A DNA stretch of 46,462 bases. Source: Eubacterium sp. (GTDB taxonomy: Bacteria > Bacillota > Clostridia > Lachnospirales > Lachnospiraceae). The notes under the pieces are model-generated. The model saw only the letters and a list, made by a program, of their open reading frames with translations, did no database searches and had not been told where the DNA came from. The stretch is from the NCBI GenBank assembly GCA_024681515.1, contig JAILAR010000136.1, forward strand, positions 1-46,462, read 5' to 3'. Numbering within the stretch: the stretch's first letter is position 1; every line of letters begins with the position of its first letter. A program made the position numbers and the translations under genes. This document shows, piece by piece, positions 5,601 through 40,868 of the stretch.

Positions 5601-5700
5601 GGAAGTGGACGGACCGAAGCTGGTGGTCGGTGTCAGTGATATCGATTCGCAGATCCGTCGGGATATGGAATATAAAGTGATCCATAAAATGCCGGAATAA
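2686..5700 (+). CDS. PAS / degenerate GGDEF / EAL c-di-GMP phosphodiesterase
   Basis: Probable cyclic-di-GMP phosphodiesterase or sensor of 1004 residues. The N-terminus (about 1-140) is PAS-like. A GGDEF-type domain follows (DFLTGLPN start near residue 160), but the active-site loop reads A-Q-D-N-Y at residues 233-237 instead of GGDEF, so cyclase activity should be lost. The EAL domain (about 335-575) looks intact: EEALARW with E353-A354-L355, VNLS, EITES, DDFGSGYSS with D474-D475, IKLD, SEGVE and QGYYY. The C-terminal 400 residues hold three further PAS-like modules; the last two resemble each other (DDFFAASREETLRIICPED versus DFFAASRRDAMQYIYPED) and look like an internal duplication. No membrane helices are evident, so it should be cytoplasmic. 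It is monocistronic with its own promoter and terminator. The ligand of the PAS modules is unknown. Confidence 0.92.
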   Translation: MKRYKYNPIEFSLLEQSPVPYAIYQFVDQRVVTIALSAGFMELFGCDDREAAYDLMDNNMYRDVHPDDVARIEKEALFFAAEDGDYNVIYRSKKIGEYRVIHAKGRHIYPEDGVRLAMVWYTDEGAYIGSGDVQEDLLTREFSVSLQESSMHRKSNYDFLTGLPNMTYFFELVKPLKDQAASSGKRYALCFANLNGMKYYNKKFGFAEGDKLLRLFADLLVKYFGSEHSCRIAQDNYVFFSYTDGLDRTLESLFMEFEVMTGKRGVSVRVGIYPSDMGYIDTSLACDRARYACNTIKNASCSASVKFDKSMLEYETNRQYVIDHLDQAIEEGWLQAYFQPLVRTANGRVCDEEALARWIDPVKGMLSPAEFIPVLEDAKLIYKVDLHMVDLIIKKLKAQAQMGLYLVPNSVNLSRTDFDACDMVEEICKKMDAAGVPRRLLTIEITESVLGSDFDFMKKQVERFRSQGFQVWMDDFGSGYSSLDVLQSIQFDVIKLDMRFMKQFNNDEKSRVIITELMRMALGLGIETVSEGVERQDQVDFLSRVGCTKIQGYYYCKPISMEGIFERYEKGTQIGFENPEESEYFEAIGRINLYDAVALTREEQGSMGQYFNTLPMAVVGIDDTFLKVIRCNESYREYLMSTFHQDDVDSPVPYAIFLDGFGSAFAKALKRCADTGERVFLDERLGSDSTIRAFIRRIDYNPVTGVTACGVVILGISHDTGQGVTYSDVANSLSTDYIHMYYVNLETENFIEYTPDPSADALVVERRGTDFFAASRRDAMQYIYPEDAKHFAEVFHKENILRNLDENGSFTCTYRLLVNGAPVYVHMKVVRMSNNDNYIIIGVSNIDAQMQAQKHLERLREERISYARIAALTGNYIVIYIVDPKTGHFEEYDATTEFDELKIAKGGDDFFAASREETLRIICPEDLPLFEQFFTKEKMIEEIEENGVFMMIYRLMINGKPNFINLKAAMVQEVDGPKLVVGVSDIDSQIRRDMEYKVIHKMPE

Positions 5701-5707
5701 CCTGACA

Positions 5708-5756
5708 TGTCATCCTGAGCAGGCGATCATGCCATCCTGAGCAAAGCGAAGGATCC
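5708..5756 (+). repeat. Hairpin repeat family I, copy A (with an extra left half)
   Basis: CATCCTGAGC-AAA-GCGAAGGATCC at 5733-5756 is a full element. A second left half (TGTCATCCTGAGC, 5708-5720) sits just upstream. The arms pair as ATCCT/AGGAT plus GC/GC around a tandem G-A mismatch. The 3' arm GGATCC also forms the start of the adjacent terminator. Confidence 0.75.
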
Positions 5757-26947: not shown

Positions 26948-27290
26948 AGTTTAATACTTCAAACCGATGAAGCGGAGATAACGGCAGTGATGCCCATACA
27001 GAGAGTCCGGGAAGGTGAGAGCCGGATTGGAAACAAGTTGTCAAATGGACCGCGGAGGGCGCAGTCAAATGAAGCTGACAGGGATGTGCGAGAGAATACG
27101 TCATGCGATCCCGGGAGCTGCAGAGTATTCTGCGACGTGAGGCAGGCGTAACGTGCCGAGGATATGTTGGTATCCTACAGAGCGTACGGCAGGTCATACA
27201 GAACGTTGATCAGAGACCGTAAAACAGGGTGGCACCGCGGATAGTGTATGATTATTCGTCCCTGGCAGAGCATTTGCTTTGCCAGGGTTT
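26948..27290 (+). promoter_or_regulatory. Trp T-box riboswitch with intrinsic terminator
   Basis: tRNA-sensing leader of the trp operon. The specifier triplet TGG (Trp) lies at 27046-27048 in the usual AAA-TGG-ACC setting. The T-box AGGGTGGCACCGCGG is at 27226-27240; its TGGC pairs with GCCA of tRNA-Trp (discriminator G). The terminator stem CCCTGGCAGAGC/GCTTTGCCAGGG (27260-27287) is followed by TTTCTTT and ends about 30 bases before trpE. Uncharged tRNA-Trp should bind and stabilise the antiterminator, raising expression when tryptophan is short. Confidence 0.93.
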
Positions 27291-29414: not shown

Positions 29415-29418
29415 AAGA

Positions 29419-29453
29419 ATTCTTCGCCATGCTTCACATGGCTCAGAACGACA
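29419..29453 (-). repeat. Hairpin repeat family I, copy B
   Basis: Read on the minus strand: GTTCTGAGC-CATG-tgaag-CATG-GCGAAGAAT. The apical CATG/CATG stem replaces the simple GAA loop of other copies. It lies five bases after the trpG stop. Confidence 0.75.
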
Positions 29454-29493
29454 TGAGCATGTCATCCTCAGAACGATATGAGCATGTCATCCT
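29442..29493 (+). repeat. 25-bp tandem repeat between trpG and trpD
   Basis: CTCAGAACGACATGAGCATG and CTCAGAACGATATGAGCATG, each followed by TCATCCT, are two units offset by 25 bases with one mismatch. They join the end of copy B to the left arm of copy C, as if the array grew by duplication. Confidence 0.75.
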
Positions 29494-29522
29494 GAGCGGC
29501 ATGAAATGCCGCGAAGGATCCT
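29485..29522 (+). repeat. Hairpin repeat family I, copy C
   Basis: TCATCCTGAGC-GGCAT-gaa-ATGCC-GCGAAGGATCC. The apical stem is five perfect pairs and the outer arm is the TCC/GGA form. Confidence 0.8.
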
Positions 29523-29587
29523 GAACGGATAAAACCATGTAATAAAAGAACAAAACGAAGAAAATTTAAAAAAACGGAGGAGACACA

Positions 29588-30619
29588 ATGATCAAGGAAG
29601 CAATCGTTAAGATCGTAAACAAGGAAGACCTGACCTATGATGAGGCCTACGCAGTCATGAACGAGATCATGAGCGGCGAGACCTCCCCCACACAGAATGC
29701 TGCATTCCTGTCGGCACTGTCCACCAAGAGTGCCCGGGCAGAGACCACGGATGAGATCGCAGGCTGCGCAGCTGCCATGCGGGATCATGCAACCAAGGTA
29801 GAGACCGGCATGGAGATCTTCGAGATCGTGGGAACCGGCGGAGACAATGCCCATACCTTCAACATTTCCACCACATCTGCGCTGGTGGCGGCGGCCGGCG
29901 GCGTAAAGGTGGCAAAGCACGGAAACCGTGCGGCATCCTCCAAATGCGGTACCGCGGACTGTCTGGAGGCACTGGGTGTGAACATCCGGCAGAGTCCGAA
30001 GCGCTGCGTGCAGCTGCTGAACGAAGTGGGTATGTGCTTCTTCTTCGCACAGAAGTATCACACCTCCATGAAGTATGTGGGCGCCATCCGTAAGGAGCTG
30101 GGCTTCCGTACCGTGTTCAATATCCTTGGCCCTCTGACGAATCCGGGAACGCCTTCCATGCAGCTGCTGGGCGTATATGATGAGTACCTTGTAGAGCCCC
30201 TGGCACAGGTTCTGGTAAGCCTGGGAGTAAAACGTGGTATGGTGGTGTATGGAATGGACAAGCTGGATGAGATCTCCATGTCCTCCCCCACAAAGGTCTG
30301 TGAGATCCGGGACGGATGGTTCCGCACCACGGTGATCACACCGGAGCAGTTCGGGCTGACCCGCTGTTCGAAGAAGGATCTGGAGGGAAGCACTCCGGAG
30401 GAGAATGCGAAGATCACCATCGGCATCCTCAGCGGTCAGAAGGGACCGAAGAGGGATGCGGTTCTGATGAATGCAGGCGCATCTCTGTACATCGCAGGCA
30501 AGGCAGAGACCATGGCGGACGGCATCAAACTTGCTGCGGAGCTTATTGATTCCGGCAAGGCACTGCAGGTACTGGGCAGGCTCATCGATGTCAGCAACCT
30601 GCCGGATGACGAAGCGTGA
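29588..30619 (+). CDS. trpD: Anthranilate phosphoribosyltransferase
   Basis: Transfers phosphoribose from PRPP to anthranilate. The 343 residues show [17 protein letters not shown] (PRPP site), [21 protein letters not shown] and the [29 protein letters not shown] core. GGAGG lies eight bases before the ATG. The gene stands alone between two repeat-bearing gaps, not fused to trpG as in some bacteria. Confidence 0.97.
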
Positions 30620-30672
30620 GTCGGGAAATATAAGCAACCGGCCGTGATTAAAGGGGTTGATATCTTCGGCTC

Positions 30673-30702
30673 GTCATTCTGAGCACGAAGTGCGAAGAAT
30701 CC
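30673..30702 (+). repeat. Hairpin repeat family I, copy D
   Basis: TCATTCTGAGC-AC-gaa-GT-GCGAAGAATCC in the trpD-trpC gap. Outer arm is the TTC/GAA form, apical stem AC/GT. Confidence 0.8.
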
Positions 30703-30754
30703 CATGACGAATATCCGGAATGGTTGATGAATGCTCGTTGAAAGGATACAGCCT

Positions 30755-31543
30755 ATGACAATACTTGATCAACTGGCAGAATATGCCGGGATACGTGTGG
30801 AAGAGAAGAAGAGAAGCCTGCCGGAAGCGGAAGTGAGGCGGCTTGCAGAGACCTTTCCCAAGGGTGATTTCCCCTTTGAACAGGCGCTTCGGAAGGAGGA
30901 CATCTCCTTTATCTGCGAATGCAAGAAGGCATCTCCCTCCAAAGGACTTATTGCACCGGATTTCCCGTATCTTTCCATCGCAAAGGAATATGAGGCAGCC
31001 GGGGCGGATGCCATTTCCGTACTGACGGAGCCAAAATGGTTCCTGGGAAATGATGAGTACCTCCGGGAGATCGCAAAGGCGGTCCACATCCCCTGCCTCA
31101 GGAAGGATTTCACCGTGGATCCCTATATGATCTATGAGGCAAAAGTGCTGGGCGCATCGGCGGTACTGCTGATCTGTTCCATCCTTTCGGAGCAGCAGCT
31201 GGCAGAGTATCATTCGATAGCGACGTCCCTGGGGCTTTCGGTGCTGGTGGAGACGCATGATGAGGCAGAGGTCGAGACGGCTCTTCGGATCGGAGCGAAG
31301 ATCCTGGGAGTGAACAATCGGAATCTGAAGGACTTCACCGTGGATACGGAGAACAGCCGACGGCTGCGGGAACTGGTGCCCCCGGATGTGATCTTCGTTT
31401 CGGAGAGCGGAGTCAGCAGCCCGGAGGATGTGCAGCTGCTCCGGCAGTGCGGCGTGGACGCCGTTCTGGTGGGAGAGGCCCTGATGCGGGCAGAAGATAA
31501 GAAAAAGAGACTCCTGGAGTTGAAAGCAGGTGATACATTATGA
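30755..31543 (+). CDS. trpC: Indole-3-glycerol phosphate synthase
   Basis: Closes the indole ring from carboxyphenylaminodeoxyribulose phosphate. TIM barrel of 262 residues with CECKKASPSKGLI, LRKDFTVDPYM, GVNNRNLKDFTVD and VSESGVSSPEDV, all active-site or phosphate-binding stretches. The start at 30755 is favoured by AAGGA upstream and family length; an in-frame ATG at 30731 has no ribosome site. Its stop overlaps the trpF start (ATGATG). Confidence 0.96.
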   Translation: MTILDQLAEYAGIRVEEKKRSLPEAEVRRLAETFPKGDFPFEQALRKEDISFICECKKASPSKGLIAPDFPYLSIAKEYEAAGADAISVLTEPKWFLGNDEYLREIAKAVHIPCLRKDFTVDPYMIYEAKVLGASAVLLICSILSEQQLAEYHSIATSLGLSVLVETHDEAEVETALRIGAKILGVNNRNLKDFTVDTENSRRLRELVPPDVIFVSESGVSSPEDVQLLRQCGVDAVLVGEALMRAEDKKKRLLELKAGDTL

Positions 31544-32175
31544 TGGAAAGCTATGTTGAGGGAAGCACGAAGATCAAGTTCTGCGGACTTCGGACTACGG
31601 AGGACGTGGAGTACGCAAATGAACTTCGTCCGGATTATGTAGGTTTTGTATTTGCAAAAAACAGCAAACGGATGGTGACGGAACGGCAGGCAGAACTCCT
31701 GAAGTCCGCTCTGGAGCCGGGCATCATCAAGGTGGGTGTCTTCGTTCGTGAGGATCCGGAGCGTATCGCCAATCTGCTGCATCATGGGACCATCGACTAT
31801 GTGCAGCTTCATGGCGGTGAAGATACAGAGTACATCCGAAAGCTGAGGAAACTGACCGATCATCCCATCATTCAGGCATTTCGCGTTGATACGAAGGAAG
31901 ATCTGGCAGCGGCGGAGAAGAGCGAGGCGGATTATATCCTTCTGGATTCCGGCACCGGCGGAACAGGAACAGCTTTCAACTGGGAGCTGCTGAAGGGCTT
32001 TTCACGGCCTTATTTCCTGGCAGGCGGTCTGTCCCCCGAAAATGTACGGGAGGCCATCGAAACACTGCACCCTTACGTGGTGGATGTGAGTTCCGGTATC
32101 GAAACCGACGGCAGGAAGGATCCTGCGAAGATGGAAAAGTTTATCGATGTGGTAAGAAGTACAGAAAGTGAGTAA
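31540..32175 (+). CDS. trpF: Phosphoribosylanthranilate isomerase
   Basis: Amadori rearrangement step of tryptophan synthesis; TIM barrel of 211 residues. [18 protein letters not shown] carries the catalytic cysteine, [13 protein letters not shown] and [11 protein letters not shown] follow, and [15 protein letters not shown] with [11 protein letters not shown] holds the catalytic aspartate and phosphate site. It overlaps trpC by four bases and its end overlaps the trpB GTG start by eight, so the three are translationally coupled. Confidence 0.96.
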
Positions 32176-33370
32176 GACAATGACAAATCCGAACGGACGC
32201 TTCGGCATTCACGGTGGGCAGTACATACCCGAAACGCTGATGAACGCCGTGATCGAGCTGGAAGAAGCATACAATCATTTTAAAAATGACCCGGAGTTTA
32301 ACCGGGAACTGACGGAACTCTTCAACGAGTATGCAGGACGGCCATCCCGTCTGTACTATGCGGAGAAGATGACGAAGGATCTGGGCGGCGCAAAGATCTA
32401 TCTGAAGCGTGAGGATCTGAATCACACCGGCGCGCATAAGATCAATAACGTGCTGGGCCAGGCCCTTCTTGCAAAGAAAATGGGCAAGACCCGGCTCATC
32501 GCAGAGACCGGTGCAGGGCAGCACGGCGTGGCAACTGCTACGGCAGCGGCGCTGATGGGCATGGAGTGCGTGGTGTTCATGGGCGAAGAGGATACCATCC
32601 GTCAGGCTCTGAACGTATACCGCATGCGTCTGCTGGGAGCAGAAGTGGTGCCGGTAAAGACGGGAACCCGTACCCTGAAGGACGCGGTTTCCGAGGCTAT
32701 GCGGGAATGGACTTCCAGGATCGCAGACACCCATTATTGCCTGGGGTCCGTTATGGGACCCCATCCCTTCCCGACCATCGTCCGGGATTTTCAGGCGGTG
32801 ATCTCAAAAGAGATCAAGGAGCAGATGATGGAGAAGGAAGGTCGCCTGCCGGATGCAGTTATTGCCTGTGTGGGCGGCGGTTCCAATGCCATCGGAAGCT
32901 TCTATCATTTCATCGAGGATAAGGGTGTGCGCCTCATCGGCTGCGAAGCGGCAGGACGGGGCATCGATACCTTTGAGACCGCGGCGACCATTGCCACAGG
33001 ACGACTGGGTATCTTCCACGGTATGAAGTCTTATTTCTGCCAGGACAAGTACGGACAGATCGCGCCGGTATACTCCATCTCCGCAGGCCTGGACTATCCG
33101 GGCGTAGGACCGGAGCACGCATGGCTGCATGATACCGGGCGGGCAGAGTACGTGCCTGTAACGGATGAAGAAGCAGTGCAGGCCTTTGAATATCTGGCGA
33201 AGACGGAGGGTATCATCCCTGCCATCGAGTCGGCCCATGCAGTGGCCTATGCACGGAAGCTGGCACCGACACTGGATCCGGAGAAGATCATCGTGATCAC
33301 CATTTCCGGAAGAGGCGACAAGGACTGCGCGGCCATCGCACGCTACAGAGGGGAGGACATCCATGAGTAA
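32168..33370 (+). CDS. trpB: Tryptophan synthase beta chain
   Basis: PLP enzyme joining indole and serine to tryptophan, 400 residues from a GTG at 32168. Key features: [15 protein letters not shown], the PLP lysine in [30 protein letters not shown], and [10 protein letters not shown] for the phosphate. An ATG at 32180 in the same frame is an alternative start; neither has a strong ribosome site and coupling to trpF is likely. It overlaps trpA by eight bases. Confidence 0.96.
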
Positions 33371-34142
33371 GATTCATGAGGCCTTCGACGGAAAGAAGGC
33401 GTTCATTCCATTTATTACCTGCGGGGATCCGGATCTGGCAACCACCGCAGCAACCGTTCGGGCCATGGCGGCAGCAGGAGCGGATCTGATCGAGCTGGGA
33501 ATTCCTTTCTCGGATCCCACGGCGGAAGGCCCCGTGATCCAGGGAGCAAATCTTCGGGCTCTGTCCGGCGGTGTTACCACGGATCAGGTGTTTGATCTGG
33601 CGCGGGAGCTCCGGACGGACGTTACCATACCCATGGTCTTCATGACCTACGCAAATGTAGTTTTTTCTTATGATGCGGAGAAATTCATCAAAACCTGCAG
33701 CGAGATCGGTATCGACGGACTGATCCTTCCGGATCTTCCCTATGAAGAGAAGGAAGAGTTCCTTCCCATTTGCCGGAGGTATGATGTGGATCTGATCTCC
33801 CTGATCGCGCCCACCTCAGACAACCGGATCGCCATGATCGCCAGGGAGGCGGAAGGCTTTATCTACCTGGTATCCAGCCTGGGCGTCACCGGTACCCGCA
33901 GTGAGATCACCACGGACCTCGGCGCCATCGTGAAGGTGATCCGTGAGAACACGGATGTGCCCTGCGCCATCGGTTTCGGGATTTCCACACCCGAGCAGGC
34001 GGCGAAGATGGCCGGCCTCTCCGACGGAGCCATCGTAGGTTCCGCCATCATCAAGCTGCTGGCGAAGCACGGAAAGGACGCAGCACCTTACGTGGCGGAA
34101 TACGTGAAGTCCATGAAGGATGCGGTTAATTCCGTAAGCTGA
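33363..34142 (+). CDS. trpA: Tryptophan synthase alpha chain
   Basis: Releases indole from indole-3-glycerol phosphate and channels it to TrpB. The 259-residue TIM barrel has the catalytic acids in [16 protein letters not shown], then [22 protein letters not shown], the [10 protein letters not shown] phosphate loop and [10 protein letters not shown]. The start overlaps trpB. It is the last gene of the trp operon; a hairpin follows at 34173-34209 without a T tract. Confidence 0.97.
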
Positions 34143-34172
34143 TTTACGGCGGAAAAAACAGATAATACCCCG

Positions 34173-34209
34173 GATTATATAGCAGAAGCCATGTGCTTCT
34201 GCTATAATC
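34173..34209 (+). promoter_or_regulatory. Hairpin with an embedded extended -10 (end of trp operon / start of reductase unit)
   Basis: GATTA-ta-TAGCAGAAGC pairs with GCTTCTGCTATAATC around a five-base CATGT loop. The 3' arm contains TGC-TATAAT (-10 at 34203-34208), which could start transcription of the reductase gene at 34288. No T tract follows, so a simple terminator is less likely. Confidence 0.5.
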
Positions 34210-34287
34210 ATGTATGGAGTTGTTTTGCCGCTCATGCGGTTATATGACGGGATGGACATGCCGTCATGCGCTTAGAAGGGGGTACTT

Positions 34288-35406
34288 ATGGCGAAAAAAC
34301 TGGGCTTTGGTCTGATGCGGCTTCCGGAGATCGGGAGTGAGATCGATGTTGAGCAGACGAAGAAGATGGTGGACCTTTTCATGGAACGGGGCTTCACCTA
34401 CTTTGATACGGCACTGATGTATTGCGGCGGACGCAGTGAGGCAGTGGCGAAGGAGGCACTGGTGGATCGTTATCCCAGAGATTCCTTCACGCTGGCAACC
34501 AAGCTGCATTCGGCATTCTTCAGTTCGAAGGAGGAGAGAGACACGGTTTTTGAAGGCCAGCTAAGGAAGACCGGCGTGGATTTCTTCGACTATTATCTGA
34601 TCCATGACGTGAACAGCCACTCCATCGAACACTATGACAGGATGGATGTGTGGAGCTGGATTGCGGAGAAGAAAAAAGCCGGCCTGATCCGGGAGATGGG
34701 ATTCTCCTTTCATGATGGGCCGGAGCTTCTGGACAAGGTGCTGACGGAGCACCCGGAGATGGAATTCGTACAGCTGCAGATCAATTATCTGGACTGGAAC
34801 AGCACGGGCATCCAGTCCCGGAAATGCTACGAGGTTGCCACAAAGCACGGCAAGCCTGTCACGGTCATGGAGCCGGTGAAGGGCGGAACTCTTGCAAATG
34901 TACCGCAGGCCGTATCGCAGCTTTTTAAGGAATATGATCCGGAAGCATCCGTTCCCAGCTGGGCCATCCGCTTTGCGGCCAGTCAGCCCAATGTGCGCTT
35001 CGTGCTGTCCGGCATGAGCAATCTGGCGCAGGTGGAGGATAATACCTCCTACATGCAGGATCTGAAACCGCTGAGTGACGAAGAACTGAAACGGATCTGG
35101 AAGGCAGTAGCCATCATCAACGGAGAAATCGCCATCCCCTGTACCGGCTGCGCTTACTGCGTGGACGGCTGTCCCATGCGGATCCCCATCCCGAAGTATT
35201 TTGCGCTGTACAACGCGGAATTGCAGGAGGTGGAGGGTAAGGGCTGGACACCTCAGGGCGAGTACTACGACAATCTGGCCAAGACAAACGGCAAAGCCAG
35301 TGCCTGCATCCAGTGCGGCCAGTGCGAAGGTATCTGTCCTCAGCATCTGCCGATCATTAAGAACCTGCAGGATGTGGCGCAGCTCTTTGAGAATAATGAA
35401 AACTGA
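34288..35406 (+). CDS. Aldo/keto reductase with C-terminal ferredoxin domain
   Basis: Predicted NAD(P)H- and Fe-S-linked oxidoreductase of 372 residues. The AKR barrel (about 1-275) has FGLMRLPE, the catalytic [14 protein letters not shown] region with Asp and Tyr, and a lysine in ATKLHS. A ferredoxin-like part follows with [12 protein letters not shown] and [12 protein letters not shown], enough for two [4Fe-4S] clusters. This architecture is common in anaerobic Clostridia; substrates are mostly unknown. AAGGGGG lies eight bases before the start. Only 15 bases separate it from the converging gene, and no terminator is seen there. Confidence 0.9.
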
Positions 35407-35421
35407 ATGATTTCATGTGCG

Positions 35422-36633
35422 TTACTCCGTTGTCAGCGTCAGTGATTCGGAGATCTTCAAATAGTCGGTATAATAAGTGATGCTTGCCACTCGGTTGGAA
35501 TGGGAGTTGACGGTCAGGACCAGACAGTCGTTGTTCTTCGTGTTGTAGTAGTAATGGGATCGGGACACACCGCCCATCAGATCCTCCATCTCCCAGCCGT
35601 TTCCGCTCGCGCGGTAGGTCATTTCATGAGCGGCGGTGATCTCCGGCTGGTTCACGGACACGCCGAAGAACTGGTAAGCACGGCCGGAGGTATTGATGCC
35701 GGTCAGTTTACCGTCCAGGTAGATCAGATTCAGTTCACCGTCGGTCTTTACGGTGATATGATATTTTGAATTGGCAGAGAGTCTTTTCCCAAGTTCGGGA
35801 TTGGATTCGAACTCAGTCCCTAACTCCTTTGCGATGGTATTCTCCTGCAAACGAAGCAGGTCGGAGATCTCCTGACCGCCGGATCCAAGGAAATATTTCA
35901 GTCCGCCGTAGATCCCGAAGGTGACGGCGATCAGTACCAGAAGAGCGCCGATCCGTCCGATCAGCGTCAGGATGAATTCCACGGTTCGGTTCTCCTTCGA
36001 AAGGATCCGCCGGATCACCCTCGTCGGTACGGCGATCATGATGCAGAGATAGATGAAGACGGCCAGAGCGATCAGGTTGTCACCGCCCGTGAGCATCAGC
36101 TGGAGAGCGGAGGCCACGGTCAGAAACGCAAGTAAAATGTATCTTACAAGATTCAGGATAAAATGGGAAAATCCCTCCCGGACACCTTTATTGTCCATGT
36201 GCCGCTGCAGCACCTTGAAGATGCCGTTCTGGAAGGCGTTGAACACGATGAATACGATCAGAGCAAGCAGGATCTTGATGCCGTAATCGTAGATCGTAAC
36301 GGTATCGCCGTGCAGCCACAGAATGGTATCCTGCAGCTTGGAAGATTTGGACTGTGTGATCTCGGCGATACAGCTTCGCAGGATGATGAGAATGGATGCG
36401 ATCAGAACGACGTATCGGATCATGGTGAAAATGAAACGTACGGTGTACTGGTCTGCTTCATTTCGCCCTGCCTTTCGCTGGAGCATGGTGAACAGGGTTT
36501 CCAGAAGCCAGAGAACGCTGATGGAAATGACGAGGACAACAATAATATGAACCATGGCATCCGTCAGTGGCGTACGGTTGTCCCGGATGGATTTTAAGAT
36601 TTCATCCCCGATATCATACAGTCGGTTGTTCAT
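35422..36633 (-). CDS. Multi-pass membrane protein of unknown function
   Basis: A 403-residue integral membrane protein. The N-terminal 290 residues hold about six hydrophobic helices in pairs (for example AMVHIIVVLVISISVLWLL, YGIKILLALIVFIVFNAF, FILTLIGRIGALLVLIAV) with short basic loops. The last 120 residues are soluble and beta-rich (YHITVKTDGELNLIYLDGK, RSHYYYNTKNNDCLVLTVN). I see no enzyme or transporter motif; the paired helices recall mechanosensitive-channel paddles but the conserved MscS pore is not evident. The start at 36633 has AGGAGA upstream; a longer in-frame start at 36738 would lie across the promoter. Confidence 0.75.
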   Translation of the reverse strand: MNNRLYDIGDEILKSIRDNRTPLTDAMVHIIVVLVISISVLWLLETLFTMLQRKAGRNEADQYTVRFIFTMIRYVVLIASILIILRSCIAEITQSKSSKLQDTILWLHGDTVTIYDYGIKILLALIVFIVFNAFQNGIFKVLQRHMDNKGVREGFSHFILNLVRYILLAFLTVASALQLMLTGGDNLIALAVFIYLCIMIAVPTRVIRRILSKENRTVEFILTLIGRIGALLVLIAVTFGIYGGLKYFLGSGGQEISDLLRLQENTIAKELGTEFESNPELGKRLSANSKYHITVKTDGELNLIYLDGKLTGINTSGRAYQFFGVSVNQPEITAAHEMTYRASGNGWEMEDLMGGVSRSHYYYNTKNNDCLVLTVNSHSNRVASITYYTDYLKISESLTLTTE

Positions 36634-36709
36634 GTGTCGTCTCCTGGATTTGTCGCATGGGAAATGCAGATCATTTCCGTAAATGCAGCGGTCAAAAACT
36701 GTCAGTATA

Positions 36710-36738
36710 ATTATAGCACATGACATGGAGGGAGACAA
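36710..36738 (-). promoter_or_regulatory. Promoter of the multi-pass membrane protein gene
   Basis: Minus strand: TTGTCT (-35, 36733-36738), 17 bases, extended TGC-TATAAT (-10, 36710-36715), giving a leader of about 70 bases. Confidence 0.65.
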
Positions 36739-36802
36739 AGTGAATCACATATAAAACCATATTCAGAACACGATCGGATCATCATCCGGGAAAGGATCAA
36801 TC

Positions 36803-36988
36803 ATGTCGATACCTAAGGACCCCTATATGCTGCTCAGCTGGGCAAATATGAAGCTCAGAGATCTGTATCCTTCTCTGGGGGAACTGGCTGTGGCGGAATC
36901 CGCCGATGCGGCCGAGATCACCGGAAAGCTGGAGGCGGCGGGATATTTTTACGATTCCGAGAAGAATCAGTTTGTGATTCGTGGCTAA
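36803..36988 (+). CDS. DUF4250 domain protein
   Basis: A 61-residue protein matching the DUF4250 family of small Firmicutes proteins (pattern IPKDPYMLLSWANMKLRD ... GYFYDSEKNQF). The fold looks like a small helical domain; its function is not known. AAAGGAT lies seven bases before the ATG. The promoter of gpmI begins inside its last codons, so the two genes are physically linked, but the protein has no evident role in glycolysis. Confidence 0.85.
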   Translation: MSIPKDPYMLLSWANMKLRDLYPSLGELAVAESADAAEITGKLEAAGYFYDSEKNQFVIRG

Positions 36989-37000
36989 GTATGATACAAT
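36972..37000 (+). promoter_or_regulatory. Promoter of gpmI
   Basis: TTGTGA (36972-36977), 17 bases, TACAAT (36995-37000). The -35 lies inside the DUF4250 coding end. The leader would be about 100 bases. Confidence 0.7.
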
Positions 37001-37106
37001 GATAAGTCGGGGCATGTTAGACGTGCCTAACTGACAGACTACGATCCTCCGCAGCAGAGCAGCGCTCACTGCAGGCAGGAACCCCACACGAGAGGAGAAT
37101 ATACAA

Positions 37107-38696
37107 ATGAAAAAACCTGTTGTACTTATGATCCTGGATGGCTTCGGTCTTTCGGACAATCATGAAGCAAATGCCGCTTATATGGCAAAGACACCGAACC
37201 TGGACCGCCTGATGGCTGAATGCCCCTTCGTTCCGGGTTTTGCATCCGGTATGGCAGTCGGTCTTCCGGACGGACAGATGGGTAACTCTGAGGTCGGCCA
37301 TATGAACATGGGCTCCGGCCGGATCATTTATCAGGATCTGACATTGATCACAAAGCTGATCCAGGACGGCGAATTCTTCAAGAACGAAGAGCTTCTGGCA
37401 GCTATCGAGAACTGCAAGAAGAACAATTCCGATCTGCATCTGTGGGGACTTCTGTCCGACGGTGGTGTACACAGCCACAACACCCACCTGTATGCGATCC
37501 TGGAACTTTGCAAACAGCAGGGCTTTGAGCGGGTTTATCTGCACCCCTTCTTTGACGGAAGAGATACACCGCCGGCAAGTGGCAAGGATTACCTGCAGCA
37601 GCTGGTGGATGAGGCAGCGAAGATCGGTGTGGGCAAGGTGGCATCCCTGTCCGGACGTTACTACGCAATGGACCGTGATAACAACTGGGATCGTATCCAG
37701 AAGGCATATGATTCCCTGGTGCTGGGTGAGGGCGTGAAGGAGACAGATCCCATCCAGGCTATGCAGAACTCCTATGATAACGGTGTAACGGACGAATTCG
37801 TGCTTCCGACAGTGATCACTGACGAAGCAGGCAATCCGGTATCTCTGGTAAAGCCCAATGATTCCGTGATCTTCTTCAACTTCCGTCCGGACCGTGCCCG
37901 TGAGATCACCAAGGCGTTCTGCTTCTCCGATGAGGATATCGCAGCGCAGCCGGGTGACGCTTCCGATACCAAGTGTATCAAGTTCCTGAAGCGTGCCAAC
38001 GGCTTCATGCCGCTGACCTATGTATGCTTCAAGGATTATGACGAGACCATCCCCAACAAGCTGGTGGCCTTCAAGAAGCAGGAGATCAAGAACACCTTCG
38101 GCGAGTACCTTGCAGCCAACGGCTTAAAGCAGCTGCGGCTTGCCGAGACGGAGAAGTATGCGCATGTAACCTTCTTCTTCAACGGCGGTCTTGAGGAGCC
38201 CAACAAGGATGAGGACCGTATCCTGGTAAACTCTCCGGCAGTTGCGACCTATGACCTTCAGCCGGAAATGAGTGCGCCGGAAGTCAGCGAGAAGCTGAAT
38301 GAGGCGATCCGCTCCGATAAATACGATGTGATCATCATCAACTTCGCAAACCCCGACATGGTAGGCCACACCGGTGTTCTCTCCGCAGCGATCGCAGCAG
38401 TAGAGCGCGTAGATGCATGTGTAGGCTCTGCTGCGGAGGCAGTAAAGGAGAAGGACGGCGTGCTGTTCATTTGCGCGGACCACGGAAACTGCGAGCAGAT
38501 GGTGAACTACGAGACCGGTGCACCGCACACGGCTCACACCACAAATCCGGTTCCCTTCATCCTGTTCAACTATGATCCGGCTTACACCCTGAAGGAAGGC
38601 GGAAAGCTGTGCGATATCGTTCCGACGTTGCTTGAGATCATGGGCATGCCTCAGCCGGCTGAAATGACGGGACAGTCCCTTCTCGTAAGAAAGTAA
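37107..38696 (+). CDS. gpmI: 2,3-bisphosphoglycerate-independent phosphoglycerate mutase
   Basis: Glycolytic interconversion of 3- and 2-phosphoglycerate with Mn2+. The 529 residues belong to the alkaline phosphatase superfamily: LMILDGFGLSDN (metal ligand), QMGNSEVGHMNMGSG with the phosphorylated serine, FDGRDTPP, SGRYYAMDRD, FFNFRPDRAREI, FANPDMVGHTG and CADHGNCEQM with GAPHTAHTTNPVP. The length is near the usual 510. AGGAG lies nine bases upstream. Two copies of repeat family I follow the stop, and I see no classical terminator. Confidence 0.97.
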   Translation: MKKPVVLMILDGFGLSDNHEANAAYMAKTPNLDRLMAECPFVPGFASGMAVGLPDGQMGNSEVGHMNMGSGRIIYQDLTLITKLIQDGEFFKNEELLAAIENCKKNNSDLHLWGLLSDGGVHSHNTHLYAILELCKQQGFERVYLHPFFDGRDTPPASGKDYLQQLVDEAAKIGVGKVASLSGRYYAMDRDNNWDRIQKAYDSLVLGEGVKETDPIQAMQNSYDNGVTDEFVLPTVITDEAGNPVSLVKPNDSVIFFNFRPDRAREITKAFCFSDEDIAAQPGDASDTKCIKFLKRANGFMPLTYVCFKDYDETIPNKLVAFKKQEIKNTFGEYLAANGLKQLRLAETEKYAHVTFFFNGGLEEPNKDEDRILVNSPAVATYDLQPEMSAPEVSEKLNEAIRSDKYDVIIINFANPDMVGHTGVLSAAIAAVERVDACVGSAAEAVKEKDGVLFICADHGNCEQMVNYETGAPHTAHTTNPVPFILFNYDPAYTLKEGGKLCDIVPTLLEIMGMPQPAEMTGQSLLVRK

Positions 38697-38698
38697 GA

Positions 38699-38725
38699 TG
38701 TCATTCTGAGCGAAGCGAAGAATCC
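38699..38725 (+). repeat. Hairpin repeat family I, copy E
   Basis: TCATTCTGAGC-GAA-GCGAAGAATCC, the simplest form, two bases after the gpmI stop. Confidence 0.85.
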
Positions 38726-38746
38726 ACAGATTAGCAGGAATATCAT

Positions 38747-38832
38747 ATGTCATTCTGAGCGAAGCGGACGCTGCAGCACGGTGTGCTGCGTTAAGCGTCG
38801 AATCGACCAAGCCGGCAGGCGCGAAGAATCCT
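38747..38832 (+). repeat. Hairpin repeat family I, copy F with a long inserted stem
   Basis: Left half TGTCATTCTGAGCGAAGC and right half GCGAAGAATCC are separated by about 55 bases that fold on themselves: GACGCT-g-CAGCAC-ggt-GTGCTG-cgtta-AGCGTC, then a short GCC/GGC stem. The outer arms are intact. It ends just before the MBL-hydrolase gene. Confidence 0.75.
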
Positions 38833-38886
38833 GACGCCATGAATAATATGCAACAGAATCATTTGGGCAACAGAATAGAGATCCGC

Positions 38887-39636
38887 ATGCAGTTTATCTT
38901 CCACAGTTCCTATCTGGTGGAACTTCCGGGTGCGTACCTGCTCTTTGATTATTACCAGGGGGAACTGCCGGAGCTGGATCCGTCGAAACCGCTGTATGTG
39001 TTTGCGAGTCATGCACACTATGATCATTTTTCGTCGGTGATCTTTCAGCTCATCCGGAAATATCCGAAGACGACCTATATCCTGTCGGATGATATCCCGG
39101 ATCGTCTATGCCGGGAAGCAGTGCAGGAAATGGGGATCGATCCGCCGGAGATCCGTTGGATCCGGCCGGGCATCGAGTATACCTTCCCGGAATTTCGGGT
39201 GGAAGCCTTTGGTTCCACGGATCAGGGCGTGAGTTTTCTGATCGAAGCCGGAGGGAGAGTCCTGTTCCACGCAGGCGATCTGAATGACTGGTGCTGGACG
39301 AATGTACAGAGATCCAGAAACATTTCCATGCAGCAGAGATACTTCGCTGAACTGGAAAATCTCCGTGCAGCTCTCCGTGAGGGATTGGATAAGATCGACC
39401 TGGCGATGCTGCCCATGGATCCTGTGCTGGGAGAAGGACAGTTTCAGGGACCGGTGGAATTTCTGGAACGGGTACGGGTGCGTCATGCATTTCCCATGCA
39501 TATGTGGGAGAGGTATTCCGCGGGAGAGGAGTTCCTGTCGAAATATCCGGAGTACCGGGGCGTGTTTCATCCGATCCATCGGGTCGGCGAACGCTTCACA
39601 CTGGGAAGCGACGGGAAGTTTACCTGCGAGAAATGA
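38887..39636 (+). CDS. MBL-fold metal-dependent hydrolase
   Basis: Metallo-beta-lactamase-fold protein of 250 residues, of the UlaG-like or general hydrolase branch; substrate unknown. Metal-site motifs: SHAHYDHFS (HxHxDH), VLFHAGDLNDW (aspartate) and FPMHMWERY (histidine). The start at 38887 puts the conserved first strand (MQFIFHSSYLVEL) at the N-terminus; two earlier in-frame ATGs (38839 and 38848) lie right against repeat copy F and lack a ribosome site. Even the preferred start has only a weak GAGAT. The gene sits between gpmI and the TPP riboswitch and has no clear partner. Confidence 0.82.
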   Translation: MQFIFHSSYLVELPGAYLLFDYYQGELPELDPSKPLYVFASHAHYDHFSSVIFQLIRKYPKTTYILSDDIPDRLCREAVQEMGIDPPEIRWIRPGIEYTFPEFRVEAFGSTDQGVSFLIEAGGRVLFHAGDLNDWCWTNVQRSRNISMQQRYFAELENLRAALREGLDKIDLAMLPMDPVLGEGQFQGPVEFLERVRVRHAFPMHMWERYSAGEEFLSKYPEYRGVFHPIHRVGERFTLGSDGKFTCEK

Positions 39637-39645
39637 CGGGAGAGC

Positions 39646-39674
39646 TTGCGGTATCGGAAATGCAGTGCTATAAT
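39646..39674 (+). promoter_or_regulatory. Promoter of the thi operon
   Basis: TTGCGG (39646-39651), 17 bases, TGC-TATAAT (39669-39674). Transcription would begin about 40 bases before the TPP aptamer. Confidence 0.7.
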
Positions 39675-39713
39675 GCACGGTATATTGATTGAAGATAAGA
39701 AAATCTGAATATG

Positions 39714-39800
39714 AATTACGGGAGTTGGCGGAAGCCGGCTGAGAGGAGGCGTAATCCCGTCTCGACCGCACCTGATTTGGATAATGCCAACGTAGGGATC
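39714..39800 (+). promoter_or_regulatory. TPP riboswitch (thi box)
   Basis: Thiamine pyrophosphate aptamer: GGCTGAGA at 39737-39744 and CCTGATTTGGATAATGCCAACGTAGGGA from 39771 match the conserved core. It precedes the thiamine salvage genes and should lower their expression when TPP is plentiful. Confidence 0.95.
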
Positions 39801-39858
39801 AGCCTTATGCCATGCGGCGAAGCCGCTTCAAACAGCATTCGGCGGTGAGAAAAAGAAT

Positions 39859-39885
39859 GCGAGGCAGTCCGAATGGGCTGCCTCG
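39859..39885 (+). terminator. Hairpin of the TPP expression platform
   Basis: GCGAGGCAGtCC pairs with GGgCTGCCTCGT; TCTTGATT follows. The T tract is poor, so it may act as a weak terminator. It ends about 30 bases before the thiM ribosome site. Confidence 0.6.
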
Positions 39886-39887
39886 TC

Positions 39888-39922
39888 TTGATTCATGGAG
39901 CGCGTAAGCGCGAAGCAAGGAG
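39888..39922 (+). repeat. Hairpin repeat family II, copy b
   Basis: TTGATTCATGGAGCGC-gtaa-GCGCGAAGCAAGGAG; the 3' end is part of the thiM Shine-Dalgarno (AAGGAGG). Confidence 0.6.
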
Positions 39923-39930
39923 GTTTAGAG

Positions 39931-40767
39931 ATGTTAAAAGAATGCTGGGAAAATGTGCAGAGGAAGTCTCCTCTGGTGCACAACATCACAAATTACGTCA
40001 CGGTAAATGACGTGGCAAATGTACTTCTGGCCTGCGGCGGAAGTCCGATCATGTCGGATGAACCGGAGGATGTGGAGGACATCACCTCCATCTGTGGGGG
40101 GCTGAACATCAACATCGGGACACTGAACAAGAGCAGTATCGAGGCCATGTTCCGTGCGGGAAAACGCGCCAATGAGCTGGGCCATCCGGTGCTTCTGGAT
40201 CCCGTGGGAACCGGAGCATCGAAGCTGCGGACGGAGACGGCGGACCGCCTGGTGTCGGAGGTGAGATTTGCATGTATCCGCGGAAATATCTCTGAGATCA
40301 AGACGATCGCAAACGGCAGCGGAACCACCAAGGGTGTGGATGCGGATGTGGCGGATGCGGTGACGGAGGAGACTCTGCCCGCAGCGGTGGCATTTGCCAG
40401 GGATCTGGCCGCGCGGCTGGATACCGTGATCGCCATCACCGGTGCCATCGATATCGTGGCAGATGGGTCGAAGGCCTACGTGATCCGGAACGGACGTCCG
40501 GAAATGGGAAGGATCACAGGGACCGGCTGTCAGCTTTCGGGACTCTGTACGGCATATCTGGCGGCGAATCCGGAGCAGCCGCTGGAGGCGGTCGCAACAG
40601 CGGTCACTCTGATGGGTGCGGCTGGGGAAATAGGATGGTCGCATATGCATGCTGTGGACGGCAACTCGACCTATCGGGATCGGATCATTGATGCGATCTA
40701 CAATATGGACGGAGAGATCCTGGAAGCATGGGCAAAGGTGGATGTGTGGAGTAACGATCAACCATAG
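39931..40767 (+). CDS. thiM: Hydroxyethylthiazole kinase
   Basis: Phosphorylates hydroxyethylthiazole (THZ) for thiamine salvage. The 278 residues belong to the ribokinase-like fold: PLVHNITNYVTVNDVANVLLACGGSPIM at the N-terminus, LLDPVGTGASKLR, RGNISEI, and the anion-hole region TGTGCQLSG with the catalytic cysteine loop. The start at 39931 has AAGGAGG nine bases upstream. First gene behind the TPP riboswitch. Confidence 0.95.
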   Translation: MLKECWENVQRKSPLVHNITNYVTVNDVANVLLACGGSPIMSDEPEDVEDITSICGGLNINIGTLNKSSIEAMFRAGKRANELGHPVLLDPVGTGASKLRTETADRLVSEVRFACIRGNISEIKTIANGSGTTKGVDADVADAVTEETLPAAVAFARDLAARLDTVIAITGAIDIVADGSKAYVIRNGRPEMGRITGTGCQLSGLCTAYLAANPEQPLEAVATAVTLMGAAGEIGWSHMHAVDGNSTYRDRIIDAIYNMDGEILEAWAKVDVWSNDQP

Positions 40768-40782
40768 CAAGGAAACGCACGA

Positions 40783-40813
40783 ATGTCATCCTGAGCGTAG
40801 CGAAGGATCCTGA
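40783..40813 (+). repeat. Hairpin repeat family I, copy G
   Basis: TGTCATCCTGAGC-GTA-GCGAAGGATCCTGA between thiM and thiE; outer arm TCC/GGA. Confidence 0.8.
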
Positions 40814-40835
40814 CAGGATAGCGGGATGATTTCGA

Positions 40836-40868
40836 CAGGATTCTTCGCCCACCGGGCTCAGAATGACA
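40836..40868 (-). repeat. Hairpin repeat family I, copy H (opposite orientation)
   Basis: Minus strand: GTCATTCTGAGC-CC-ggt-GG-GCGAAGAATCCTG. It faces copy G across about 22 bases. Confidence 0.8.

What the first reader, a model, noticed from the sequence alone, without database searches (positions are those of the whole stretch)
29419..40868. Dispersed intergenic hairpin family with covarying arms and apical stems (eight copies)
Copies at 5733-5756, 29419-29453, 29485-29522, 30673-30702, 38699-38725, 38747-38832, 40783-40813 and 40836-40868 share TCATYCTGAGC...GCGAAGRATCC. Seen directly: where the left arm has TTC the right has GAA, and where it has TCC the right has GGA (a GUUC/GAAU wobble in copy B). 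The apical part changes too but stays paired: GAA, AAA, GTA, AC-gaa-GT, CC-ggt-GG, CATG-tgaag-CATG, GGCAT-gaa-ATGCC. A tandem G-A/A-G mismatch in the stem is invariant. Such compensatory change argues for selection on the folded form, as RNA or as single-stranded DNA during mobility. Similar TCATTCTGAGCGAAGCGAAGAATC strings are familiar as dispersed repeats in other bacteria, but I know of no defined function.
Basis: partly seen in the sequence, partly recalled or inferred. Interest (0 to 1): 0.75.

Follow-up and report, generated by a model that had tools for sequence, protein, structure and literature searches.

The report
Widespread TGTC-tagged DNA hairpin repeat
The window carries eight copies of a tiny mobile-looking DNA hairpin that the same bacterium holds about ninety times and that occurs, nearly letter for letter and often in hundreds of copies, in genomes from many bacterial phyla, yet no enzyme that moves it could be found beside it.

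Summary
All eight copies exist. They belong to a genome-wide family: 47 strict and 92 looser matches here, none to the reversed pattern. The conserved unit is TG-TC-AT-N-CTGAG...CGAAG-N'-AT-C-Y: a stem with an internal tandem G·A/A·G, an apical stem of variable sequence and often a GNA cap. I read it as a REP/BIME-class repeat with the TGTC/CGTC tag of Di Nocera 2013, whose main text does not mention Firmicutes. The same unit sits in up to 319 copies per genome, in records titled from about 19 phyla. The TTC/GAA versus TCC/GGA change is real pairing, but it marks two partner subtypes: inverted neighbours are unlike in 68 of 69 pairs in fetched stretches of the genus and 14 of 17 over this genome. 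Independent change lies mainly in the apical stems. Congeners lack copies or have their own at the same operon gaps. Y1/RAYT transposases are not associated; the mobiliser is unknown. An RNA role is not excluded: 87 of 136 loci in codirectional gaps lie sense.

The parts
5710..5720 (+). left half-copy (tag arm only) directly upstream of the copy at 5732
   Evidence: half-duplications of this kind are counted (this one, beside a copy with a changed arm, was not in that count)
5732..5755 (+). copy 1, C/G subtype, apex AAA, 3' of the gene ending at 5700 (EAL domain)
29418..29451 (-). copy 2, T/A subtype, degenerate foot (G-T wobble), apex CATG..CATG; tag-to-tag with copy 3
29487..29520 (+). copy 3, C/G subtype, apex GGCAT-GAA-ATGCC, between a glutamine amidotransferase (trpG-like) and a trpD-like gene
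30674..30701 (+). copy 4, T/A subtype, apex AC-GAA-GT, between the trpD-like gene and an indole-3-glycerol phosphate synthase (trpC) gene
38701..38724 (+). copy 5, T/A subtype, apex GAA, 3' of a phosphoglycerate mutase gene
38750..38830 (+). copy 6, T/A subtype, arms intact, apex replaced by a longer sequence; same strand as copy 5
38765..38824 (+). 60-nt sequence in the apex of copy 6; also inside a C/G-subtype copy on G000:C156 and, without these arms, twice in the congener G251 (100% and 97%)
40786..40809 (+). copy 7, C/G subtype, apex GTA; tail-to-tail with copy 8 (29-nt spacer), between hydroxyethylthiazole kinase and thiamine phosphate synthase genes
40839..40866 (-). copy 8, T/A subtype, apex CC-GGT-GG

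Best explanation
It is a REP/BIME-class miniature repeat of the TGTC/CGTC-tagged kind: a non-autonomous DNA element of about 28 nt, found mainly between genes, that multiplies singly, in tandem and as inverted pairs of two different stem subtypes. Shown: sharp unit boundaries, largely maintained pairing with a near-invariant tandem G·A and a common GNA cap, unlike partners in inverted pairs of the genus, presence/absence differences between related species at the same gene junctions, and patchy spread across phyla. Inferred: that the recognised form is the single-stranded DNA hairpin with its unpaired TGTC foot, as GTAG plus hairpin is for TnpA-REP, and that an enzyme acting in trans cuts and copies it. 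Which enzyme is unknown; none was found beside the copies, so it may be lost, visiting on phage or plasmid, or a host function.
For: 47 strict and 92 looser matches, reversed pattern 0. Information falls to near zero outside TG...ATCY: TG in 33 of 35 and 69 of 71 copies, a pyrimidine after ATC in 34 of 35 and 71 of 71 (own genome and G260; not forced by the pattern). 631 copies in 2.66 Mb against 2 for the reversed control; copies with two arm changes (127) outnumber those with one (39). Caps: of 44 distinct triloop apices in this genome 29 are GNA, 0 TNC, 15 other; of 32 four-base apices listed for G294 and G280, 31 are G..A, 15 of these with a pyrimidine third base, i.e. GNNA but not the RNA rule GNRA. 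Unlike inverted neighbours 68 of 69, alike same-strand neighbours 31 of 32, in fetched stretches of G000, G251 and G260. Turnover: the trpD-trpC gap holds one copy here, none in G268, G251 and G269 (13-19 nt gaps), a cluster in G260. Copies per genome in the genus 0 to 218. A tail-to-tail unit recurs with a similar spacer in an Ignavibacteria genome. Copies also on plasmids and a phage-like contig.
Against: No precise empty site was found, so insertion boundaries are inferred from conservation. No transposase is associated. Outside pair 3, one-sided changes and mismatches (180) outnumber double changes (123). Only 53 of 90 own copies have a GNA cap and 12 have loops over 5 nt. In codirectional gaps copies lean to the sense strand (15 of 21, 32 of 46, 40 of 69), as an RNA role would give. 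The replication-strand bias in two congeners (65 of 93) cannot be separated from gene direction and is absent in other phyla (35 of 86). Unlike pairing shows no excess in viral contigs (12 of 27; 14.3 expected) and is partial in other phyla (27 of 46; 15.2 expected). Spacers differ between pairs in G260, so spread of one dimer is not shown. Folding energies are unremarkable for the short class.
Confidence: 0.65

Rival explanations
1. The repeat works as RNA: an intercistronic or 3' hairpin that stabilises or attenuates mRNA, and is kept for that reason.
For: Copies lie close behind genes (median 39 nt to the upstream 3' end in this genome, by crude ORF calling) and lean to the sense strand in codirectional gaps: 87 of 136 in three sets.
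Against: Inverted pairs place one of two hairpins antisense; 14 of 21 genus genomes examined hold at most one copy, several of them incomplete; relatives lack copies at the same operon gaps; four-base caps follow GNNA rather than GNRA in the listed part of two genomes; no conserved T-run follows.
Confidence: 0.17
2. No enzyme is involved: the hairpin spreads by replication slippage, template switching and recombination, and its pairing is a by-product of palindrome correction.
For: The left half (tag and left arm up to the apex) is duplicated upstream in 44 of 485 copies, the right half downstream in 7; tandem arrays such as 13 copies at 46-nt steps in G251.
Against: Local slippage does not explain dispersed copies with unrelated flanks or presence in many phyla; palindrome correction would be expected to erase the tandem G·A, which stays in 615 and 608 of 631 copies.
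Confidence: 0.1
3. A RAYT (TnpA-REP, Y1 HUH transposase) of the host mobilises it, as for GTAG REPs.
For: Tag-plus-hairpin anatomy is REP-like; Y1 genes occur in 29 of 41 carrier genomes; 2 of the first 30 Y1 loci fetched hold a copy (no expectation computed).
Against: 60 Y1 loci in carrier genomes (59 of them new) hold 3 copies against 2.97 expected from density; 89 of the 102 matches listed were looked at in all. G266 (30 copies, completeness 100, draft) has no Y1 match, and RAYT-like frames (190 aa or more, weak match; my definition) occur in 3 of 7 carriers and 6 of 14 other genomes of the genus.
Confidence: 0.08

Closest known systems
CGTC-tagged REPs (families CGTC-1 to -4, Di Nocera et al. 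2013, PMC3733652)
   Same: Unpaired C/TGTC tag at the 5' foot, stem beginning with paired AT, short tail, 20-40 nt, intergenic, inverted pairs, often heterodimers, no flanking transposase, patchy over phyla.
   Different: Here: internal tandem G·A/A·G, 3-nt caps on apical stems of variable length, frequent clusters, and both tail-to-tail and tag-to-tag pairs. That paper's Table 1 gives loops of 4-5, clusters rare and one dimer type rare, and its text names five phyla without Firmicutes. Its Figure 2 sequences could not be seen.
GTAG REPs, BIMEs and REPINs with RAYT/TnpA-REP (PMC6006769, passages only; E. coli Y/Z REPs recalled)
   Same: Tagged hairpins, inverted mosaic of two different partner types, tandem amplification, intergenic.
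   Different: Tag TGTC instead of GTAG/GTGG; no RAYT beside copies or correlated with them.
Stable DNA minihairpins d(cGNAg), d(cGNNAg) (PMC5090098, passages and reference entries only; d(GCGAAGC) recalled)
   Same: Commonest apex is GC-GAA-GC; caps are often GNA or GNNA.
   Different: Known as in vitro motifs; no stability was measured here.

Membership tests
CGTC/TGTC-tagged REP superfamily | unpaired CGTC (or TGTC/CCTC) at one foot | tested here: met
   TGTC or CGTC in 34 of 35 copies (own genome) and 71 of 71 (G260)
CGTC/TGTC-tagged REP superfamily | stem of 8-9 bp starting with paired AT | tested here: inconclusive
   AT foot pairs kept in 603 and 595 of 631, but the nine positions include two G·A mismatches
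CGTC/TGTC-tagged REP superfamily | loop of 4-5 nt | tested here: not met
   3-nt caps commonest, on variable apical stems
CGTC/TGTC-tagged REP superfamily | 3-nt tail, mostly CCA | tested here: inconclusive
   one conserved pyrimidine; then CT or CC in own genome, TT in G260
CGTC/TGTC-tagged REP superfamily | no associated transposase gene | tested here: met
   for Y1 genes only: 3 copies at 60 Y1 loci against 2.97 expected
BIME/REPIN | inverted pairs of two REP variants | tested here: met
   68 of 69 unlike in fetched genus stretches, 14 of 17 over the own genome; not in viral contigs
BIME/REPIN | dimer disperses as a unit | tested here: inconclusive
   similar spacer in two Ignavibacteria pairs; differing spacers in G260
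GTAG REP with RAYT | 5' GTAG/GTGG tag | tested here: not met
   tag is TGTC
GTAG REP with RAYT | RAYT gene flanked by the repeats | tested here: not met
   drafts, so a missing gene cannot be ruled out
intrinsic terminator | T-run after the hairpin | tested here: not met
   no conserved T-run downstream
Rfam family | match to a curated model | tested here: not met
   no match at the copies, at gathering scores or E up to 1

The most novel reading that the evidence does not exclude
A single TGTC-tagged DNA hairpin has colonised bacteria of many phyla in up to hundreds of copies without any transposase of its own, because its form (G·A-braced stem, GNA cap, unpaired tag, paired with an unlike partner) is recognised by a widely shared host function or by an enzyme that visits on phages and plasmids. 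The rule that paired copies must differ at one stem pair arose with different base pairs in different lineages.
Probability: 0.3. Interest if true: 0.85.

Novelty: new variant of a known kind. Interest (0 to 1): 0.6.

Why it matters
What moves CGTC-tagged REPs was left open by the 2013 survey. This family gives carrier and non-carrier species within one genus, a carrier with 30 copies and no detectable Y1 gene, defined boundaries and pairing rules, so the mobiliser can be sought by comparison and tested in vitro. A near-identical hairpin in many phyla also bears on how selfish DNA crosses phyla. And it shows that apparent covariation in a repeat can be partner identity rather than compensation.

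Tried and rejected
Recurrent neighbour genes: 655 ORFs from 110 loci (30 own, 80 of the 119 genome contigs stretches); the two largest clusters (12 and 10 loci) look like common families, the second with response-regulator receivers by eye, the first not identified; not powered to find one gene per genome. RAYT by NCBIfam NF047646: none over the cut-off in 8 genomes, weaker matches in 2. RAYT flanking: not above density. Replication-strand bias: 21 of 29 loci in G251 (origin placed from 20 sampled stretches) and 44 of 64 in G260, but 481 of 559 genes there follow the same strand, only 2 codirectional loci oppose it, and other phyla show 35 of 86; not claimed. Empty site: among 514 copies with flanks, the reports that I could see (output cut, 71 in all) were repeat arrays or occupied sites. 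Phage origin from MT838150: rejected, its ORFs read like a Bacteroides chromosome piece, by eye. Same-family survey: 7 of 250 genomes carry it. Gene context uses long ORFs and misplaces some copies (window 30674 came out as divergent). A seed set of RAYT proteins was extracted and not used further. Literature: six 15-base forms of the core occur in two unrelated papers (listing); one search's 40 listed titles of 69 are unrelated; RepRanger (PMC12306157, passages) names CGTC only in its references. Figures and supplements cannot be searched, so this does not show that the repeat is unpublished.
Full report
Observation. The eight copies are present at the stated places, give or take a few bases. 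With one mismatch allowed, left and right arms each exceed all 100 shuffles of the window. The window lies on contig C168 of a 3.13 Mb draft of 197 contigs. This genome holds 47 strict and 92 looser matches, the reversed pattern none; 90 remain after I dropped two matches that span a half-duplication. Genes beside the copies are trpG-, trpD- and trpC-like, a phosphoglycerate mutase and two thiamine genes (Pfam).

Anatomy. Across 35 copies here and 71 in G260 the conserved unit runs from TG to the pyrimidine after ATC, with little information outside; this genome alone adds weak tail conservation (copies with CTGAGC just upstream were left out). Foot pairs A-T and T-A are followed by a variable pair, C-G, T-A, a tandem G·A/A·G, G-C, and an apical stem. 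In 631 copies from 2.66 Mb of fetched loci (reversed control 2) the third pair is T-A 385, C-G 184, G-C 23. Double changes that keep a pair occur at the second (19), fifth (12), eighth (34) and ninth pair (54), beside 17, 26, 29 and 68 copies with a one-sided change or mismatch; 21 of the last are G-A, as a second tandem G·A would give. The tandem G·A and A·G stay in 615 and 608. These copies are related and were not thinned by phylogeny, so I give counts, not significance.

Apex. In this genome the apical part takes 63 distinct forms; 44 end in a triloop, of which 29 are GNA, none TNC and 15 other; six end in four bases (four GNNA). By copies, 53 of 90 have a GNA cap and 12 have loops over five bases; 18 carry a second tandem G·A module. 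In an earlier, smaller set of longer apices from all sources GNA and other triloops were 6 and 6, GNNA 8 of 11, TNC and TNNC 0. Four-base apices in the listed part of G294 (52 of 251 copies) and G280 are G..A in 31 of 32, with a pyrimidine third base in 15 of the 31. That is the d(cGNNAg) rule of stable DNA loops (Nakano 2002, seen as a reference entry in PMC5090098) rather than the RNA GNRA rule (recalled). The preference of tandem G·A for PyGAPu contexts in DNA is recalled, not tested. Folding energies did not separate DNA from RNA or one strand from the other.

Two partner subtypes. Inverted neighbours within 100 nt are unlike at the third pair in 8 of 9 pairs (part of this genome), 6 of 6 (G251) and 54 of 54 (G260, 0.70 Mb chosen to hold copies), whereas same-strand neighbours are alike in 31 of 32. 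The whole own genome gives 14 of 17 unlike. In G294, a bacterium of unnamed phylum, the unlike pair is G-C with T-A, 13 of 13 among the 52 of 251 copies listed; in G280 it is 7 of 8, p 0.10. Other phyla together: 27 of 46, 15.2 expected; viral contigs 12 of 27, 14.3 expected, no excess. Both inverted pairs of the window obey the rule and its same-strand pair is alike. In G260 tail-to-tail and tag-to-tag spacers have a median of 11 nt (range 4-27 and 8-83) but differ in sequence.

Turnover. In the trpD-trpC gap this genome has one copy; G268, G251 and G269 have 13-19 nt without one, G266 has 39 nt with only a GAAGGATCC string, which may be a remnant, and G260 has its own cluster. At other junctions G269, G266 and G251 have copies of their own, and G268 and G260 hold fragments. 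Counts in 21 genomes of the genus, a sample, run from 0 (11 genomes, several incomplete) to 218; among 250 genomes of the family 7 carry it. Intergenic sequence is too diverged to show an exact empty site.

Distribution. By record title (counted by hand) these come from about 19 phyla, mostly MAGs, where misbinning is possible; isolates or finished genomes among them include Mucilaginibacter, Hymenobacter, Calothrix PCC 7103, Brocadia pituitae and Lachnospiraceae AC2029 and AD3010. The 40 genomes reached through 41 of the 119 loci, picked by hand, carry 3 to 319 copies. No convincing hit came from 50,697 phage records. Both record searches used one form of the repeat.

Mobiliser. Y1 transposases (PF01797) occur in 29 of 41 carrier genomes, with 102 matches listed. 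Of the 30 Y1 loci fetched there, two hold three copies. Sixty loci fetched afterwards, one a repeat of the first set, hold 3 copies against 2.97 expected from genome density. In the genus, RAYT-like frames occur in 3 of 7 carriers and 6 of 14 others, and G266 with 30 copies has no Y1 match at completeness 100, in 130 contigs. This repeats, for this family, the 2013 statement that CGTC REPs lack a dedicated transposase. Other enzyme classes were not surveyed.

RNA or DNA. Codirectional gaps show 15 of 21, 32 of 46 and 40 of 69 sense copies, a modest bias that an RNA role or selection against antisense hairpins could give. The top strand lies on the lagging-strand template in 65 of 93 loci of G251 and G260, but gene direction explains this as well, and other phyla do not show it. 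I weigh DNA higher because of the cap rule, the inverted pairs and the turnover, but this is inference.

Half-duplications. The left half is duplicated upstream in 44 of 485 copies and the right half downstream in 7; the direction is the same in all five sets (2:0, 3:1, 24:2, 9:3, 6:1), though events are not independent within a genome. It suggests that synthesis or cutting halts at the apex in one direction.

Known kind. I file it as a TGTC-tagged REP/BIME variant: tag, inverted unlike pairs and lack of a Y1 transposase are met; loop length is not, and stem and tail are inconclusive. Whether it equals one of the drawn CGTC consensus sequences I could not see. The paper itself says that types with unpaired residues in the stem may have escaped detection (section 17).

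Noticed in passing
window 38765-38824: A 60-nt sequence sits in the apex of a T/A copy here and of a C/G copy on G000:C156; G251 holds it twice (100% and 97%) without these arms. It looks like a second dispersed element or cargo; an exact 27-base piece was not found in viral contigs.
   Followed up: partly
window 26958-27266: T-box leader (75.2 bits, below Rfam's gathering score of 93, E 1.3e-14) ahead of the ORF at 27248.
   Followed up: no
window 39708-39816: TPP riboswitch (45.6 bits, below the gathering score of 54.3, E 7.2e-6) ahead of a hydroxyethylthiazole kinase gene at 39895.
   Followed up: no
G251:C1:1962250-1962825 (L452): Thirteen same-strand copies at 46-nt steps, a tandem array of the repeat.
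   Followed up: no
G251:C1:3357901 to 482449 (across the record's start): No copy in a 0.98 Mb arc, a quarter of the chromosome, which holds the terminus-type skew switch in the sampled stretches; the arc was chosen after seeing the data.
   Followed up: partly
L371 (MT838150.1): Record named Bacteriophage sp. whose ORFs read, by eye, like a Bacteroides chromosome fragment.
   Followed up: partly
own genome, e.g. G000:C43:5318-5347: 18 of 90 copies have a second tandem G·A module in the apical stem, as in GAGGAGC-GTA-GCGACGAAG.
   Followed up: partly
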